5,375 nt of DNA from Prevotella sp. (GTDB lineage Bacteria > Bacteroidota > Bacteroidia > Bacteroidales > Bacteroidaceae). This document shows, piece by piece, positions 1 to 5,375 of the stretch (its first letter is position 1; the number at the start of each line of letters is the position of its first letter). The DNA lies in assembly GCA_021204735.1 (NCBI GenBank), contig JAJPYV010000314.1:1-5375 (forward strand), in the 5' to 3' direction. The position numbers and the translations under genes were made by a program. The notes under the pieces are model-generated. The model was not told the origin of the DNA. It made no database searches and saw only the letters and a list, made by a program, of their open reading frames with translations.

Positions 1-123
1 GTTCATTATCCTCTTGAACGCCGCAAGGAGCGTGTCCGTCATGTTGTTGGCCAGCCCCCACAACAAGAACAGTGTGCTCACAAGGATAAATGGTGCGTAG
101 TATTTCCTCTCAAGTGCTCGCAT
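1..123 (-). CDS. fucP: FucP-family MFS sugar:H+ symporter, N-terminal fragment
   Basis: Only the first 41 codons are present; the gene runs off the left edge. The product should be an inner-membrane major-facilitator permease importing L-fucose or a related sugar with a proton. Residues 1-9 are a short basic cytoplasmic start, and a hydrophobic first membrane helix begins about residue 10. The stretch LWGLANNMTD at 21-30 aligns with the first helix of E. coli FucP. N27 and D30 fall where FucP has Asn43 and Asp46, the latter known to matter for proton coupling. The ATG at 123-121 is chosen because an in-frame TAA lies four codons upstream, leaving no room for a longer ATG start. No Shine-Dalgarno is visible, as is usual in Bacteroidota. 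GC of the fragment is about 50% by hand count, above the neighbouring DUF2971 gene. The family is fairly sure, but the sugar is not: glucose, galactose or N-acetylglucosamine relatives share this helix, so the symbol is family-level. Confidence 0.8.
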   Translation of the reverse strand, partial: MRALERKYYAPFILVSTLFLLWGLANNMTDTLLAAFKRIMN

Positions 124-204: not shown

Positions 205-1356
205 TTACGGAAGCTGCTTGCAAGTTAATTTCAAAAGATAACGAGAATCTGTTTCCATCTTATATAATTTTACTCCTTGACCTTTCACTGCCTCACGAAC
301 ATATTGGATACATCCCTCAGGACATTTAACTCCGAAATAAACAGCTTCCACACAACCTAGTGGCAAATGTAATCTTGTATACTCACATTTTGTTGACGGG
401 TCATAGTAAACTAAGCGAACTTCGTTCTCATATTCCCAAGTTTTGGCTTTTCCGAAAAACGCATCTATGAAACTCATTTTATCAACTGTTTGTTCGTCAT
501 CATATTTTATTCCTCTCCATCGTGATATAATCATATTTTCCTTATCATCTTTGGGAAAATCTTTGGGGAACTTATATTTTACACAAATGCCTTTATGACT
601 GTCGGCATAATGTGACCACATCAGCGTATTACAAACCTCAGAACCCCCATTCTTAGACACAGCATTATTAGAATTACCCTCAGATGGATGATCATAGCAG
701 ACAAAGCAGCGGATTCTAACCGAACGGCATGTTTCCTCCAATTGTTTCATACGGATTTCTTCGTCTTTTTCTTTCTTCATGTATTCAATCCAAGGAAACA
801 TAAGGCAATCCATCGGGTCATTAAAGTTAGCGGGGTCGGAGAGAGTCAAGACGTTATCCTTTAAATCTCCGATAAAATATTTGTCGCATTTTCGGAAGCA
901 ATATAAATTCCTGTCACTCCAATTTTCATTGTTCTTGGATTTCCCTGACAACATCAAGTAAAACAAGAATTTTTTTGAAGCCAAGGGATTAAATTCGGAT
1001 GCAATGATGCTAAAATTCGCGTAAATTAATGCACTATACCATTTACTATCCCTTTCAGAATCATTTCCATAAAGTTTGCAAAACTCGTTCATGCTGTTTT
1101 CCAATGGGCCCGCGATGTGCTTGATATAGTCCAAATTCTCCAAAGTTACACCTAATGTCCAACATACCGACATCATCGTTGTGATAACTTTTGAATGTGT
1201 TTCCTTTGGGAGATATGACCAATATAATCGGTACTTCTCAAGCCCTGCATATATCTGTGATAAATGTGGTTTTATGGGGAGATTAAGCAACTCGTTTATC
1301 TCATTCTCCATTTCACAAGTAATAGCTGACATATTCTCAATTTGTTCTTTTACCAT
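205..1356 (-). CDS. DUF2971 domain protein with helical N-terminal extension
   Basis: The product is a 383-residue protein with no signal peptide or membrane helix, so probably cytoplasmic. Residues about 150-375 show the ordered motifs of DUF2971: NLYCFRK (150-156), LSDPANFNDPMD (172-183), RCFVC (216-220), LMWSHYADSHKGICVKY (245-261), WEYENEVRLV (307-316) and VEAVYFGVKCP (336-346). The biochemical function of DUF2971 is not known to me; members recur in accessory and defence neighbourhoods. Residues 1-145 match no domain I recognise and look mostly alpha-helical, making the protein longer than a bare DUF2971 domain. There are 16 cysteines, with C-x3-C pairs at 153/157 and 345/349 and C-x2-C at 217/220. 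The ATG at 1356-1354 is used because an in-frame TGA lies ten codons upstream; M9 is an alternative start. The gene follows the TIR-STAND gene by 75 nt on the same strand, suggesting co-expression and a joint role. Sampled GC is about 32-40%. Confidence 0.85.
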   Translation of the reverse strand: MVKEQIENMSAITCEMENEINELLNLPIKPHLSQIYAGLEKYRLYWSYLPKETHSKVITTMMSVCWTLGVTLENLDYIKHIAGPLENSMNEFCKLYGNDSERDSKWYSALIYANFSIIASEFNPLASKKFLFYLMLSGKSKNNENWSDRNLYCFRKCDKYFIGDLKDNVLTLSDPANFNDPMDCLMFPWIEYMKKEKDEEIRMKQLEETCRSVRIRCFVCYDHPSEGNSNNAVSKNGGSEVCNTLMWSHYADSHKGICVKYKFPKDFPKDDKENMIISRWRGIKYDDEQTVDKMSFIDAFFGKAKTWEYENEVRLVYYDPSTKCEYTRLHLPLGCVEAVYFGVKCPEGCIQYVREAVKGQGVKLYKMETDSRYLLKLTCKQLP

Positions 1357-1431
1357 GTAGTCATAGGCTTGAAAGCCAAAGAATCAAATATGGAACCTTA
1401 TGATTAGTCTGACTGATGTGGTCGCGAATCG

Positions 1432-4400
1432 CTAACTCCAACTCGTGTAATGCTCCTCTTCGAAATTTTGGGCATCTTCTATCTTCTTCTCATAGGAGGC
1501 GGTCATCTTTGCAGCCCATTGACGGACAATTGCGTTTTTGTTGTTCAGCAAAGCCTCAACCGCACGTTTCTGACTGTAGAGTAAAGGCAAAACGGAACCG
1601 GTGATTGCAAAAGTCCCCAGATGCGCCTCAAGAGAATTCAGAACATATGGTTTGTCAGCGTATTTTTCCAAAATTTTAATCACCAAATCGGGGAATTTGC
1701 CATTACCATCCAGAGGAACCATTTCTATGAGTATGGCAGGAGCTTTTTCCGGATATCGTTCACACCACGCCATAAAACTTTCAGTATGGTCTTCCGTGAA
1801 CAATATTCCCGCTTCATTGTAGCTCCCTGTTTTAGAACCGAGGATATTGTGCAAACGGTAACCGCTGAATTCGTCATTTACCAAAGTATCAGATATGTCT
1901 TTCCAGACTTCGCTAAAATAATCTCTTACAAGCAATTGATAAAAATCATCAAGGCCGTAGCTACTATAGTGTGTGCTGTCGCTATCTAAGAATTTTATAA
2001 CCTTTTTATTCAACGTGCATGCCAATTCGGGATTGTGCTTTCTTTTCAACAAGAAATTTATGATATGCCAATATTGCTCGGACGGTTCGAGAAGGTCTTC
2101 GGATGCTGCATCTTTCAACACGACGTTTGTTATAACCTCAAAGGTTTCGGGCATACGGCTATAATTATCTCCGAAGGTTGTCATCATGGCCATATGCAAA
2201 ACTGTTTGGAATGAGCCCGGCAGCTTGGATATTTTCGAGAACAATTTTGCTATATCTGAATCGGAATGCTCTCCTATTGTGAGGAAGGACCAATATTGGA
2301 GAAAAATGTCCACCGGCACTTTCCCGCATTTAACCAAGCTGTACAAGCAGTCAAACTTTGGATTATCCGGCATTAACCCTCTGGCAGCCGTACACGAAAA
2401 TGCGATGTCATATTTTTCTTTCTTCAGCAATTCTGAAAATGCGAAATCGAATACAGTTGTATCAATGGTTTTCATGAAATCCACCAATACCGCATAGCCG
2501 TTGTATTGAAAATCCGGAATGGCATCGATGAAATTTTTTGTAACTATGAGTTGTTCCTCACTGTTTAAAGATTCTGCCAAAACCTTCCCGAAAGAATATG
2601 TCAGAAGGTTTTCCGATGTTAGAATCTTGTGCAGGATTTCTTTGTCGTATAACTTTTTGCTTGCAATTTCCTTTGCCAAATCAGAATAAAGATTCTCAAT
2701 TCTCTCGTTAACGGCATCCAAAGCCATCGTATTGAAATTCCATCTGCCTTCTTTGTTTATGTAGCAGTATCGGGATACAATGTCGGTCTTCATTAACTTC
2801 GTTATAACCCTGTCCACTCTGCCGTGTTGTTCTTTCGTTAATACAATGTTCGGATTGTTTTTGACAAGATATAGTGTATCCAACATTTTGTCCCAATTGC
2901 CGTTCTTGCGTTCAGAAACATCCTCTATTAACGGCAATATCAAATCACACAAACCGCAACGGCACAATATGCCGAAATTGTCTTCCAAGATTCCCAAACA
3001 CTGCCCCTCAAATGCGGAGTGTTGGCCTATCTCGTTTTTGACAAGTTCAATGCAACCGCTAAGGTATTCACGTATTTCCTCATACGTTTTAGGCTTATAG
3101 TAACTCAGGTTTTTGGTTCCTTGTCTCTCCGCGCCGCCCATCAAAAAGAAATCACCCGTACGCAGAGCCCGTGAGATTGCTTTGAGAACAATTTCTTTGT
3201 ACTCCTCCGTTGCCATCATTTGACGCAAGAAGTCCAGACGATCATTCAGAGGGGTTTCCGTAGCAGGGAGCATGACGGGGAAAAGCCCAATAAACTGTGA
3301 AGTGGCGTTATTCCCGTATTCTTCATTTTCAGCAATACCCAGCAACATCATCATCTTGGCAGCCTTGTTGAAACAACGTGAGTCGTAACATAGTTTGTCC
3401 AAGGTCCATACAATGTTACGCCGGCCTTCCGCAAGCTTTTTCAGTTCGCTGGTCGATTGCGTACCCAGCGCATAATACAATCCGCTCGCTACAGCCACAG
3501 GGTTCACTTCTGCAAAAGAGCGGAAGAGGCGTGAACCTAATTCTGTGTTAATCACTTCCGCATTCACAAAAGGGCTTTGGACATTCATAAATTCCGCAAC
3601 CATCATTTTGGCTTTCTCATCGAATGCCATATTCTGAAATTGCGTTAATAACGCACGTGACAAGGTTACAGAATATACAGAACCCTGTATTGAATGGACA
3701 ACAGCTTGCAGCCTTTCCGTAGTACATTCTTCAATCCATTCCGCTACAAGACGCAATGCTATGGGAATGGGCCGTATTCCTATCATTCTGCCTTTACACT
3801 CTATTATGCCTTTCTTTTTATATCGCAATATGATTTCGTCAAATTCATGTTCTAAAACTTGATTGCTACCATCAATTGACGTAATATCTTTATTAGTTGC
3901 AACAAAAGCAGTTTCGCCATGCAATTCCTTGGCAAAACCGATAAAATCAAACAGCGAAAGTGAGCGCAGAATTTTCCTTTCTCTACTGTTTTTGTCTACA
4001 CCTAGAAATTTTCCCATCAAAGCATCATCGTTTATTTGGCCGAGGGGTTCTCCGTGCTTCAGACCTTCACCCAATACCAGAGCAATTTTGGGTATTCCGT
4101 CTGCAAATTCTTTTAGTTTTTTCAAATCATAATTCTTTACATAGTCCTTGTACCCATCGAATATCTCATCCACAACTTTATCGAATTTCTTTCCCAACCT
4201 AAGAGGTTTTGAAACAGAATTGTCGGCTTCTCCATAATCATTGCATATAGTGATAATAGGATTTATGGCTCGTTTGGCCGTTTTATAGTCAGTTATCTTA
4301 TCATGCAGAATCTTGTCACAATTATCAAATATCAAAATTAGTTCCGGATAATTCTCAAAAATAAAAGGAAGTTTATTTTTAATTTCTTTTTCATCCACAT

Positions 4401-5205
4401 CTTGACAATCTACGTATGCGTATTTCCAATTATCCTCTTGCCCACGAAAACTCTCCAACACCAATCGCGTTTTACCTAATCCATATAACCCTAATATACG
4501 AAGATTATCTGTATTCTCTGTAATTTCTTTTTTGTAAGGTTCATAGCCGTCCCAATAAAAATCCCCAATAAAATCCGATAATTCAATTTGCTTTTTGTGT
4601 GTTATAAAAGGGTAAATGTCTTTATCGAGCATATATTGAGCTGATTTTACACAACCCTTTATTGCTTTAGTCAAATCCTTGACCAATTCTCTCTTAACAT
4701 TTTTTCTTTCAAATTGAGGGCATGAACTTAACTTGTACTCTATGGGATTCCTTCTTTGACGTAAATCTACCGGCATTTCTTTATCAGCATCATTTGGGCT
4801 ACCGTTTATCGTGTTAAGAACTTTTATTATTTGGGAGTCAAAATTTCTTCGACCACATGCAATTCCATGCTCATGCAAAACATTGGCATTCATTATTACC
4901 CTCTTCTTCTCATTACCATTTCTTTTACGCCGAAATCCGAAAAAACCTTTTTTTCTATCTGGCGCGAGGCCAACAAACGTCATATCAGCTACATAAATAT
5001 GACAGTTTTTTATTCGCTCTTCATTTATTTTGGTTATATCCGGAGAACCAGGCTCACCGGAAACTCCTTCTTGATATTCTATATTTACCTCTCCCAACTC
5101 ATTGTGTACTTTGGCTATCGCTTCTGTAATACATTCAGCCCAAAATTTTTTATTATACTTGACATCGGTTTCTGATTGCCATGAGAAAAATAAGCGTAAT
5201 TTCAT
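1432..5205 (-). CDS. TIR-like / STAND NTPase / helical-repeat NLR-like defence protein
   Basis: The product has 1257 residues and appears soluble. Residues 1-160 form a TIR-like domain: strand LRLFFSW (3-9), GSPDI (53-57), CHIYVADMT (68-76), NANVLHEHG (106-114) with E112 as the candidate catalytic Glu, and VDLRQRR (146-152). About 200-405 is a STAND/NB-ARC-like ATPase: Walker A GLYGLGKT (239-246), Walker B LILIFDNCD (289-297) and a GIP (GxP) motif at 370-372. Residues 408-492 resemble a winged helix. From about 495 to the end it is alpha-helical, a likely HEAT/TPR-type sensor, with ENEEYGNNATSQF (626-638) and TGSV (1202-1205) standing out. By analogy with Avs and bacterial NLR proteins, target binding would trigger ATP-dependent oligomerisation and TIR nucleotide hydrolysis that stops the infected cell; this is inference. 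The ATG at 5205 follows the SGNH stop by 12 nt without a Shine-Dalgarno, so read-through transcription is possible. A nucleoside-deoxyribosyltransferase-like role for the N-terminus is the main alternative. Domain calls are strong; the trigger is unknown. Confidence 0.88.
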   Translation of the reverse strand: MKLRLFFSWQSETDVKYNKKFWAECITEAIAKVHNELGEVNIEYQEGVSGEPGSPDITKINEERIKNCHIYVADMTFVGLAPDRKKGFFGFRRKRNGNEKKRVIMNANVLHEHGIACGRRNFDSQIIKVLNTINGSPNDADKEMPVDLRQRRNPIEYKLSSCPQFERKNVKRELVKDLTKAIKGCVKSAQYMLDKDIYPFITHKKQIELSDFIGDFYWDGYEPYKKEITENTDNLRILGLYGLGKTRLVLESFRGQEDNWKYAYVDCQDVDEKEIKNKLPFIFENYPELILIFDNCDKILHDKITDYKTAKRAINPIITICNDYGEADNSVSKPLRLGKKFDKVVDEIFDGYKDYVKNYDLKKLKEFADGIPKIALVLGEGLKHGEPLGQINDDALMGKFLGVDKNSRERKILRSLSLFDFIGFAKELHGETAFVATNKDITSIDGSNQVLEHEFDEIILRYKKKGIIECKGRMIGIRPIPIALRLVAEWIEECTTERLQAVVHSIQGSVYSVTLSRALLTQFQNMAFDEKAKMMVAEFMNVQSPFVNAEVINTELGSRLFRSFAEVNPVAVASGLYYALGTQSTSELKKLAEGRRNIVWTLDKLCYDSRCFNKAAKMMMLLGIAENEEYGNNATSQFIGLFPVMLPATETPLNDRLDFLRQMMATEEYKEIVLKAISRALRTGDFFLMGGAERQGTKNLSYYKPKTYEEIREYLSGCIELVKNEIGQHSAFEGQCLGILEDNFGILCRCGLCDLILPLIEDVSERKNGNWDKMLDTLYLVKNNPNIVLTKEQHGRVDRVITKLMKTDIVSRYCYINKEGRWNFNTMALDAVNERIENLYSDLAKEIASKKLYDKEILHKILTSENLLTYSFGKVLAESLNSEEQLIVTKNFIDAIPDFQYNGYAVLVDFMKTIDTTVFDFAFSELLKKEKYDIAFSCTAARGLMPDNPKFDCLYSLVKCGKVPVDIFLQYWSFLTIGEHSDSDIAKLFSKISKLPGSFQTVLHMAMMTTFGDNYSRMPETFEVITNVVLKDAASEDLLEPSEQYWHIINFLLKRKHNPELACTLNKKVIKFLDSDSTHYSSYGLDDFYQLLVRDYFSEVWKDISDTLVNDEFSGYRLHNILGSKTGSYNEAGILFTEDHTESFMAWCERYPEKAPAILIEMVPLDGNGKFPDLVIKILEKYADKPYVLNSLEAHLGTFAITGSVLPLLYSQKRAVEALLNNKNAIVRQWAAKMTASYEKKIEDAQNFEEEHYTSWS

Positions 5206-5217
5206 ATCATATAAATT

Positions 5218-5375
5218 TTAGATGGGGTATTTTTCGTTATAATGTACAACTTTCTGCAATCGCTTCGCGAATTTTCGGGTGTATATCGGCGCGCCGTTCT
5301 TGTTAAGGTGAACATTGTCATAGAACCACTCTTTGTGGTTTAGGAAATCAGGATTTTGAGAATCATCAAAACAAG
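5218..5375 (-). CDS. C-terminal fragment of an SGNH/GDSL-type hydrolase-like protein
   Basis: The last 51 codons and a TAA stop of a gene entering from the right edge are present. The fragment contains WFYDNVHLNKNGAPIYT, which fits the final SGNH-hydrolase block: an Asp three residues before a His (D19 and H22 of the visible part), then L-N-x-x-G-A, then a short amphipathic helix. In that superfamily the Asp and His complete the catalytic triad with an N-terminal Ser that lies outside the window. Members act as esterases or acyltransferases on carbohydrates and lipids, and in Bacteroidota many are lipoproteins or MBOAT partners. Which applies here cannot be seen. The reading frame is open to the edge and stops 12 nt before the next gene on the same strand, so it is probably co-transcribed with it. 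The family call rests on one motif and the fragment is short. Confidence 0.6.
   Translation of the reverse strand, partial: CFDDSQNPDFLNHKEWFYDNVHLNKNGAPIYTRKFAKRLQKVVHYNEKYPI

What the first reader, a model, noticed from the sequence alone, without database searches (positions are those of the whole stretch)
205..5205. Candidate two-gene defence module: TIR-STAND-helical NLR-like protein plus DUF2971 protein
Seen: two consecutive same-strand genes, one with TIR-like motifs, intact Walker A (239-246), Walker B (289-297) and GxP (370-372) motifs and about 760 helical residues, the other with the full set of DUF2971 motifs. Known: TIR effectors fused to STAND switches and repeat sensors are a recurring anti-phage architecture (Avs and bacterial NLR-like proteins), usually acting as single genes. 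Inferred: a constant DUF2971 partner would make this a distinct two-component system with a second effector, antagonist or target-recognition subunit. I do not recognise this pair as a named system.
Basis: partly seen in the sequence, partly recalled or inferred. Interest (0 to 1): 0.75.

Follow-up and report, generated by a model that had tools for sequence, protein, structure and literature searches.

The report
TIR-armed NLR-like phage-defence switch
This window encodes a large protein that matches a known phage-defence family whose front domain differs from relative to relative like an exchangeable tool; here the tool is a predicted TIR-like domain that would break down NAD+ or a related nucleotide, likely shutting down infected cells, and the gene beside it is not a constant partner.

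Summary
Both genes and the motifs are real. Gene A (1432-5205, minus strand, 1257 aa) has a predicted TIR-like N-terminal domain with an invariant Glu112, a STAND-type NTPase and a long C-terminal part. PADLOC already has its core: residues 221-744 match the profile PD-Lambda-4_A, as do all 36 relatives scanned with it. That profile's own N-terminus belongs to a different, nuclease-looking domain. Across 80 relative loci the same core carries TIR-like (24), nuclease-like (32), alpha/beta-hydrolase (12), metallophosphoesterase (6) or trypsin-like (2) front domains; 4 are unclassified. A 74-row core tree needs at least 6 switches between them. The window is thus the TIR-armed branch of a modular NLR-like family.

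The proposed two-gene system fails its own test. No DUF2971 gene is adjacent in any of the 80 loci; one locus (L074) has one 7 kb away. Among 393 genomes of the order, only the window's has both on one contig. Gene B is itself a PADLOC defence candidate (PDC-S31), so it is most likely a second, independent defence gene.

Four TIR-type relatives lie between hsdS and hsdR of type I restriction operons; two other relatives directly follow hsdR. NADase activity, phage protection and trigger are inferred, not shown.

The parts
1432..5205 (-). Gene A, 1257 aa: predicted TIR-like domain + STAND-type NTPase + long C-terminal part; relative of PADLOC PD-Lambda-4_A by its core
4591..5205 (-). N-terminal domain, residues 1-205, predicted TIR-like (TIR / nucleoside-deoxyribosyltransferase-type fold)
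   Evidence: AlphaFold2 model of residues 1-210, pLDDT 82.8; PDB matches to TIR-STING, SPARTA, RRS1/RPS4 TIR, AbTir, MilB, DNPH1
4870..4872 (-). Codon of Glu112, predicted catalytic glutamate
   Evidence: E in 25 of 25 rows of A1 and 28 of 28 rows of A2; lies in helix 107-118 of the model
3976..4563 (-). STAND-type NTPase region, residues 215-410
   Evidence: Pfam AAA_14 E 0.0033, below its cut-off; PD-Lambda-4_A profile; K245 in 37 of 37 proteins of A4
4465..4491 (-). Walker A, residues 239-247 (GLYGLGKTR)
   Evidence: sequence
4315..4344 (-). Walker B-like strand, residues 288-297
   Evidence: sequence; D294 in 33 of 37 proteins, E in the other 4
4090..4098 (-). GxP motif, residues 370-372 (GIP)
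   Evidence: sequence
3256..3438 (-). Most conserved stretch of the regions compared, residues 590-650, in the C-terminal part
   Evidence: 53% mean pairwise identity in A4 against 27% for the NTPase; R596, E626, N633 in 37 of 37
1435..3255 (-). Rest of the C-terminal part, residues 651-1257; its later portion is variable and inferred to be the sensor
   Evidence: 19-28% mean pairwise identity for stretches of residues 721-1250 in A4; role inferred
205..1356 (-). Gene B, 383 aa: helical N-terminus (model confidence low to moderate) + DUF2971 domain; PADLOC candidate PDC-S31
412..621 (-). DUF2971 Pfam match in gene B (residues 246-315)
1357..1431 (-). 75-base gap between A and B; no terminator-like site on this strand, co-transcription possible
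   Evidence: a consensus scan that found no more than shuffles do, so weak
1..123 (-). Start of a downstream membrane protein (transporter-like by eye, recalled; not part of the system)
   Evidence: no Pfam match in 41 aa
5218..5373 (-). End of an upstream unidentified ORF (not part of the system)

Best explanation
Gene A belongs by its core to the PD-Lambda-4_A protein family and carries a predicted TIR-like front domain in place of the family profile's own, so it is likely a one-gene, NLR-like anti-phage switch. Inferred working: the C-terminal part senses a phage product or a disturbed host system; ATP-driven assembly of the STAND NTPase brings the TIR-like domains together; their Glu112 site then breaks the N-glycosidic bond of NAD+ (or of a related nucleotide), and the infected cell stops growing before phage is released. 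Shown here: the domain order, the conservation of Glu112 and of the ATP-binding Lys245, the exchange of front domains on one conserved core, and restriction-modification genes beside several relatives. Gene B (DUF2971) is most likely a second, independent defence candidate in the same locus, not a required subunit.
Against: No experiment. The front domain's best structural matches include nucleotide N-glycosidases (MilB, DNPH1) and flavodoxin-fold proteins as well as TIRs; Foldseek's first two hits are flavodiiron entries, so NAD+ as substrate is not fixed. The window's N-domain has no TIR match in Pfam or PADLOC. The relatives whose front matches the PD-Lambda-4_A profile have another domain there, and PADLOC's PD-Lambda-4 also has a B protein that is absent here. 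No further defence gene can be seen around the window because the contig ends. Gene B sits 75 bases downstream on the same strand, so a working link in this one genome is not excluded. Island context of relatives has no distant-gene control.
Confidence: 0.62

Rival explanations
1. A and B form a true two-component defence system, B being a second effector, antagonist or recognition subunit, recently assembled in this lineage.
For: Same strand, 75-base gap, no terminator-like site between them on that strand; gene B is a PADLOC defence candidate; in L074 a DUF2971 gene stands directly before hsdM in the same same-strand run as a core gene.
Against: 0 of 80 relative loci have DUF2971 adjacent (11 of 80 lack one or both immediate neighbours) and 1 has it 7 kb away; of 5 core-bearing genomes among 393, 2 have DUF2971 and only the window's on the same contig; in 20 stretches around other DUF2971 matches (7.6-12.3 kb each) no core or TIR-like gene was found, though in 1 of the 20 my ORF scan missed the DUF2971 gene itself.
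Confidence: 0.15
2. Gene A is a guard that watches a restriction enzyme: like PrrC it is held off by an intact type I restriction complex and triggered when a phage disables it.
For: hsdS-[A]-hsdR order in L005, L006, L007 and L065 (in L007 hsdR overlaps A by one base), and hsdR-[A] in L053 and L074. PrrC is genetically linked to, and silenced by, a type I enzyme (PMC2610378, abstract and passages).
Against: Only 6 of 80 loci; in the window the visible flanks are not recognised as hsd genes. Defence genes are common cargo of such operons (recalled), so position alone does not show regulation.
Confidence: 0.12
3. The TIR-like domain makes a signal, or hydrolyses nucleoside monophosphates like MilB/DNPH1, rather than destroying NAD+.
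Against: No second gene is constant beside it; SPARTA, whose TIR is tied to NAD+ loss (recalled), ranks within one Z unit.
Confidence: 0.2
4. Gene A is a non-defence regulator.
For: No phage test of this branch is known to me; one visible flank looks like a transporter by eye.
Against: PADLOC family match and restriction-type neighbours of relatives, patchy occurrence (core in 5 of 393 genomes of the order).
Confidence: 0.06

Closest known systems
PD-Lambda-4 (PADLOC PD-Lambda-4_A; attributed to the E. coli functional selection, PMC9519451, by PMC10952713, passages)
   Same: Core residues 221-744 match the A profile at E 5e-32; total length (1257 against 1283) and order fit.
   Different: The first ~190 positions of the profile match the nuclease-looking front domain of other relatives, not the domain here; the B protein profile has no match in the window's genome and in 0 of 50 relatives' genomes searched.
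Avs (AVAST) STAND proteins, e.g. Avs5
   Same: Effector - STAND NTPase - C-terminal sensor plan, with an NAD+-attacking effector in Avs5 (PMC12931631, passages).
   Different: No Avs profile and no nSTAND3 matched gene A.
TIR domains of TIR-STING, SPARTA and plant RPS4/RRS1
   Same: Fold of the front domain.
   Different: No sequence-profile match of the window's N-domain to TIR families; different partner domains.
DUF2971 / PADLOC PDC-S31
   Same: Gene B matches both (PF11185 E 3e-7; PDC-S31 E 5e-33).
   Different: Adds a ~145-residue predicted helical N-terminus; fold of the DUF2971 part unresolved.
PrrC anticodon nuclease in type I restriction operons
   Same: Some relatives of gene A sit inside hsd operons.
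   Different: Different protein family; not seen in the window.

Membership tests
PD-Lambda-4 | match to the PD-Lambda-4_A profile in the STAND/C-terminal core | tested here: met
   window residues 221-744 on profile 223-745 of 1283, E 5.3e-32
PD-Lambda-4 | N-terminal part of the PD-Lambda-4_A profile (positions 1-200) | tested here: not met
   window N-domain: 0 PADLOC families at E <= 0.1; L024 and L041 N-domains match it
PD-Lambda-4 | PD-Lambda-4_B present | tested here: not met
   no match in G000 (81% complete) at E <= 1; gene B does not match it; 0 of 50 relatives' genomes
PD-Lambda-4 | phage protection | not testable with these tools
   needs plating assays
Avs / AVAST | effector-STAND-sensor plan | tested here: met
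   domain order; effector and sensor roles inferred
Avs / AVAST | match to an Avs profile | tested here: not met
   only PD-Lambda-4_A profiles at E <= 10
TIR domain | TIR fold with catalytic Glu | tested here: inconclusive
TIR domain | NAD+ cleavage | not testable with these tools
   biochemistry
STAND NTPase | Walker A, Walker B and GxP motifs | tested here: met
   sequence; conservation
DUF2971 | PF11185 above curated cut-off | tested here: met
   32.1 bits against 22
Two-gene TIR-STAND + DUF2971 system | recurring adjacency | tested here: not met
   0 of 80 loci adjacent; 1 of 393 genomes on one contig
PrrC-like restriction guard | gene lies within a type I restriction operon | tested here: inconclusive
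   6 of 80 relatives; the window's visible flanks are not recognised as hsd and the contig ends

The most novel reading that the evidence does not exclude
The PD-Lambda-4_A core is its own superfamily of bacterial NLRs: one conserved sensing and assembly module, marked by the RR-W-ENE-NNA block at 590-650, that has swapped at least five kinds of enzyme onto its front. Its TIR-armed branch works as a guard inside type I restriction operons in the way of PrrC, firing NAD+ loss when a phage disables restriction.
Probability: 0.25. Interest if true: 0.75.

Novelty: new variant of a known kind. Interest (0 to 1): 0.5.

Why it matters
In the passages I could read, PD-Lambda-4 is little more than a name and a P-loop NTPase entry. 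This work shows that its core is a widespread NLR-like chassis with exchangeable front domains, found in Bacteroidota, Pseudomonadota, Bacillota, an archaeon and others. That makes the trigger testable once for all arms: the stretch 590-650 is more conserved than the NTPase and suggests a shared activation step. The position of some TIR-armed copies between hsdS and hsdR makes a restriction-guard test direct.

Tried and rejected
Constant DUF2971 partner: rejected on counts. Gene B as PD-Lambda-4_B: rejected, no match. Another constant partner of gene A: clustering of up to six ORFs on each side gave no cluster in more than 8 loci, the larger ones restriction subunits. Phage carriage of gene A: no match in 50,697 phage records; IMG/VR gave only the N-domain, in 3 contigs. 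Plasmids: 48 of 72,556 records with distant matches, all under 60% identity. Gene B: no match in the phage records and 9 plasmid records. Solved relatives by sequence: none convincing for A; for the gene B profile only TPR-like hits to its N-terminal half. DUF2971 fold: whole-model searches were dominated by the helical N-terminus or gave nothing significant, so the fold of the DUF2971 part remains untested. Empty-site check: neither flank of the window matched by DNA in 59 other genomes. The nuclease-like name of the 32-locus front domain is by eye from a recalled D...FQxK pattern; Pfam found nothing convincing in four representatives. Literature: eight searches answered; in their listings I saw no paper that describes this TIR-armed branch or the front-domain exchange on the PD-Lambda-4_A core. 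Papers seen: PMC9519451 (passages, and one section in full; PD-Lambda-4 itself not met there), PMC10952713 and PMC13268207 (passages), PMC13174449 (outline and abstract), PMC2610378 and PMC12931631 (passages). Supplements were not available.

Rows dropped before counts: of the 80 loci, four (L020, L062, L069, L071) have no classifiable front domain; the tree also leaves out L016 (split gene) and L019, L054, L079 (short) and adds L002 and the window. The PADLOC scan of the family used 35 of 80 loci plus L002 and the window. Neighbour scans took ORFs of 110-900 aa only: 127 of 127 listed for the TIR-type loci (four on each side), 136 of 143 for the others (two on each side), and 93 of 112 for DUF2971 stretches; the 20 DUF2971 stretches were chosen from the 30 best-scoring matches given as loci. 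No distant-gene control was run, so defence-island enrichment is descriptive. In one search, 14 of 393 genomes matched; I counted as core-bearing the 5 with long core matches and left out 9 with only the N-domain or short weak stretches.

Full report
Observation. The window is a complete 5375-base contig of a draft genome (2.74 Mb, 438 contigs, 81% complete). It holds two complete minus-strand ORFs: gene A, 1432-5205, 1257 aa, and gene B, 205-1356, 383 aa, with 75 bases between. The flanks hold the start of a membrane protein (1-123) and the end of an unidentified ORF (5218-5373). Walker A, Walker B-like and GxP motifs are at the stated residues. E112, K245 and D294 are invariant in 25 aligned homologues.

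What gene A is. Pfam sees only a sub-threshold AAA_14 and one chance-level hit. PADLOC sees PD-Lambda-4_A at E 5e-32 over residues 221-744. 135 homologues were found, the nearest 44% identical; 120 are listed and most of those are full length. The few sources with names are mainly Bacteroidota, among them Tannerella forsythia, Prevotella nigrescens and Phocaeicola vulgatus. An alignment-based scan of named genomes confirmed 142 stretches and kept the best 80 loci, among them Bacteroidota, Pseudomonadota, Bacillota, Poribacteria and an archaeon. All 37 proteins scanned (35 of these loci, L002 and the window) match the PD-Lambda-4_A profile, best E 3.6e-278.

Exchangeable front. In 24 of the 80 loci the match to gene A starts at residue 1-3; in the other 56 it starts later, mostly near residues 205-236. 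Clustering the parts before the core gave, for the 80 loci, 32 of one nuclease-looking type, 24 of the window's type, 12 alpha/beta-hydrolases, 6 metallophosphoesterases and 2 trypsin-like, with 4 unclassifiable. On representatives Pfam supports the hydrolase (Abhydrolase_1, E 4e-8), the metallophosphoesterase (Metallophos, E 4e-13 and 9e-16) and, weakly, the protease (Trypsin_2, E 3e-4 and 6e-3, below cut-off), but gives nothing convincing for four nuclease-looking ones. PADLOC places the first ~190 positions of PD-Lambda-4_A on the nuclease-looking type, LmuA on the hydrolase, PDC-S60 on the phosphoesterase, and nothing on the window's N-domain; a distant row of the same type (L045) touches PADLOC's TIR effector profile at E 2e-4. 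A maximum-likelihood tree of the core (74 rows, quick method) needs at least 6 switches among five labels (4 would be the least possible); the phosphoesterase rows and one trypsin-like row nest within the TIR-bearing set on starred branches. Six rows have long branches and many have uneven composition, so single placements are less sure.

The core. In the 37 proteins of A4 the mean pairwise identity is 27% for the NTPase, 53% for residues 590-650 and 19-28% for stretches of residues 721-1250. K245, R596, E626 and N633 are invariant. I infer that 590-650 serves a shared step of assembly or nucleotide response and that the last ~500 residues vary as a sensor does.

Context. Of the neighbours of TIR-type relatives, 5 of 127 match N6_Mtase and 5 of 127 Methylase_S; AbiEii (2), Schlafen-AlbA (3), BrxL (1) and phage integrase (2) also occur, beside ordinary metabolic genes (PADLOC counts). 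Gene A relatives lie between hsdS and hsdR in L005, L006, L007 and L065 (in L005, L006 and L065 with one or two other genes before hsdR), and directly after hsdR in L053 and L074. PrrC, a translation-stopping enzyme, is likewise genetically linked to a type I enzyme that silences it (PMC2610378, abstract and passages). No control set of distant genes was run, so enrichment is not measured.

Gene B. It matches PDC-S31, a PADLOC candidate (E 5e-33), and has a confident C-terminal domain in the model whose fold stayed unresolved. In 393 genomes of the order DUF2971 occurs in 83 and the core in 5 (9 more matched only the N-domain or short weak stretches); only G000 and G099 have both, and only G000 on one contig. 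None of the 80 loci has DUF2971 adjacent; L074 has one 7.0 kb away, directly before hsdM of the restriction genes that the core gene follows. Neighbours in the DUF2971 stretches also include restriction genes (5 of 93 match MTase_I), but no relative of gene A was found in the 20 stretches; in one of them (L135) my ORF scan missed the DUF2971 gene. Gene B is best read as a separate defence candidate that shares island company.

Mechanism and verdict. Most likely gene A is a one-gene abortive-infection switch: sensing by the C-terminal part, assembly through the STAND NTPase, and nucleotide destruction by the TIR-like front. The plan is that of Avs5, where NAD+ loss on phage sensing has been shown (PMC12931631, passages), but no Avs profile matches the core. 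It is not a PD-Lambda-4 system in the strict sense, since the profile's N-terminus and its B protein are missing; 0 of 50 relatives' genomes carried B either, so the core usually seems to work without it. Novelty: a new variant of a known kind, with a modular family behind it that I did not find described in the library searched.

Noticed in passing
L005, L006, L065 (core gene at 10001-13800) and L007 (3385-7164): TIR-type relatives sit between hsdS and hsdR of type I restriction operons, with Schlafen-AlbA-like or AbiE-like genes (assigned to these loci by eye) as further cargo.
   Followed up: partly
L074:1217-13291: DUF2971, hsdM, hsdS-like, hsdR and a metallophosphoesterase-armed core gene in one same-strand run: the only other case of DUF2971 near the core.
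   Followed up: partly
L085, L086, L087 (IMG/VR contigs): The TIR-like N-domain occurs in smaller proteins (415-538 aa) on viral contigs, without the STAND core.
   Followed up: no
L016:569-4403: In Bacteroides rodentium the relative is split into two overlapping ORFs within the NTPase; decay or assembly error.
   Followed up: no
L062:10004-15001: In Bacillus kwashiorkori the core is split with about 2.3 kb between the halves, as if interrupted by an insertion.
   Followed up: no
L012: A TIR-type relative on a 3 kb contig binned as Oceanicaulis (Pseudomonadota) falls among Bacteroidota rows; possible binning error or transfer.
   Followed up: no
window 3256-3438: Residues 590-650 of gene A are more conserved across the family than the NTPase, and no Pfam model matched there.
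   Followed up: partly
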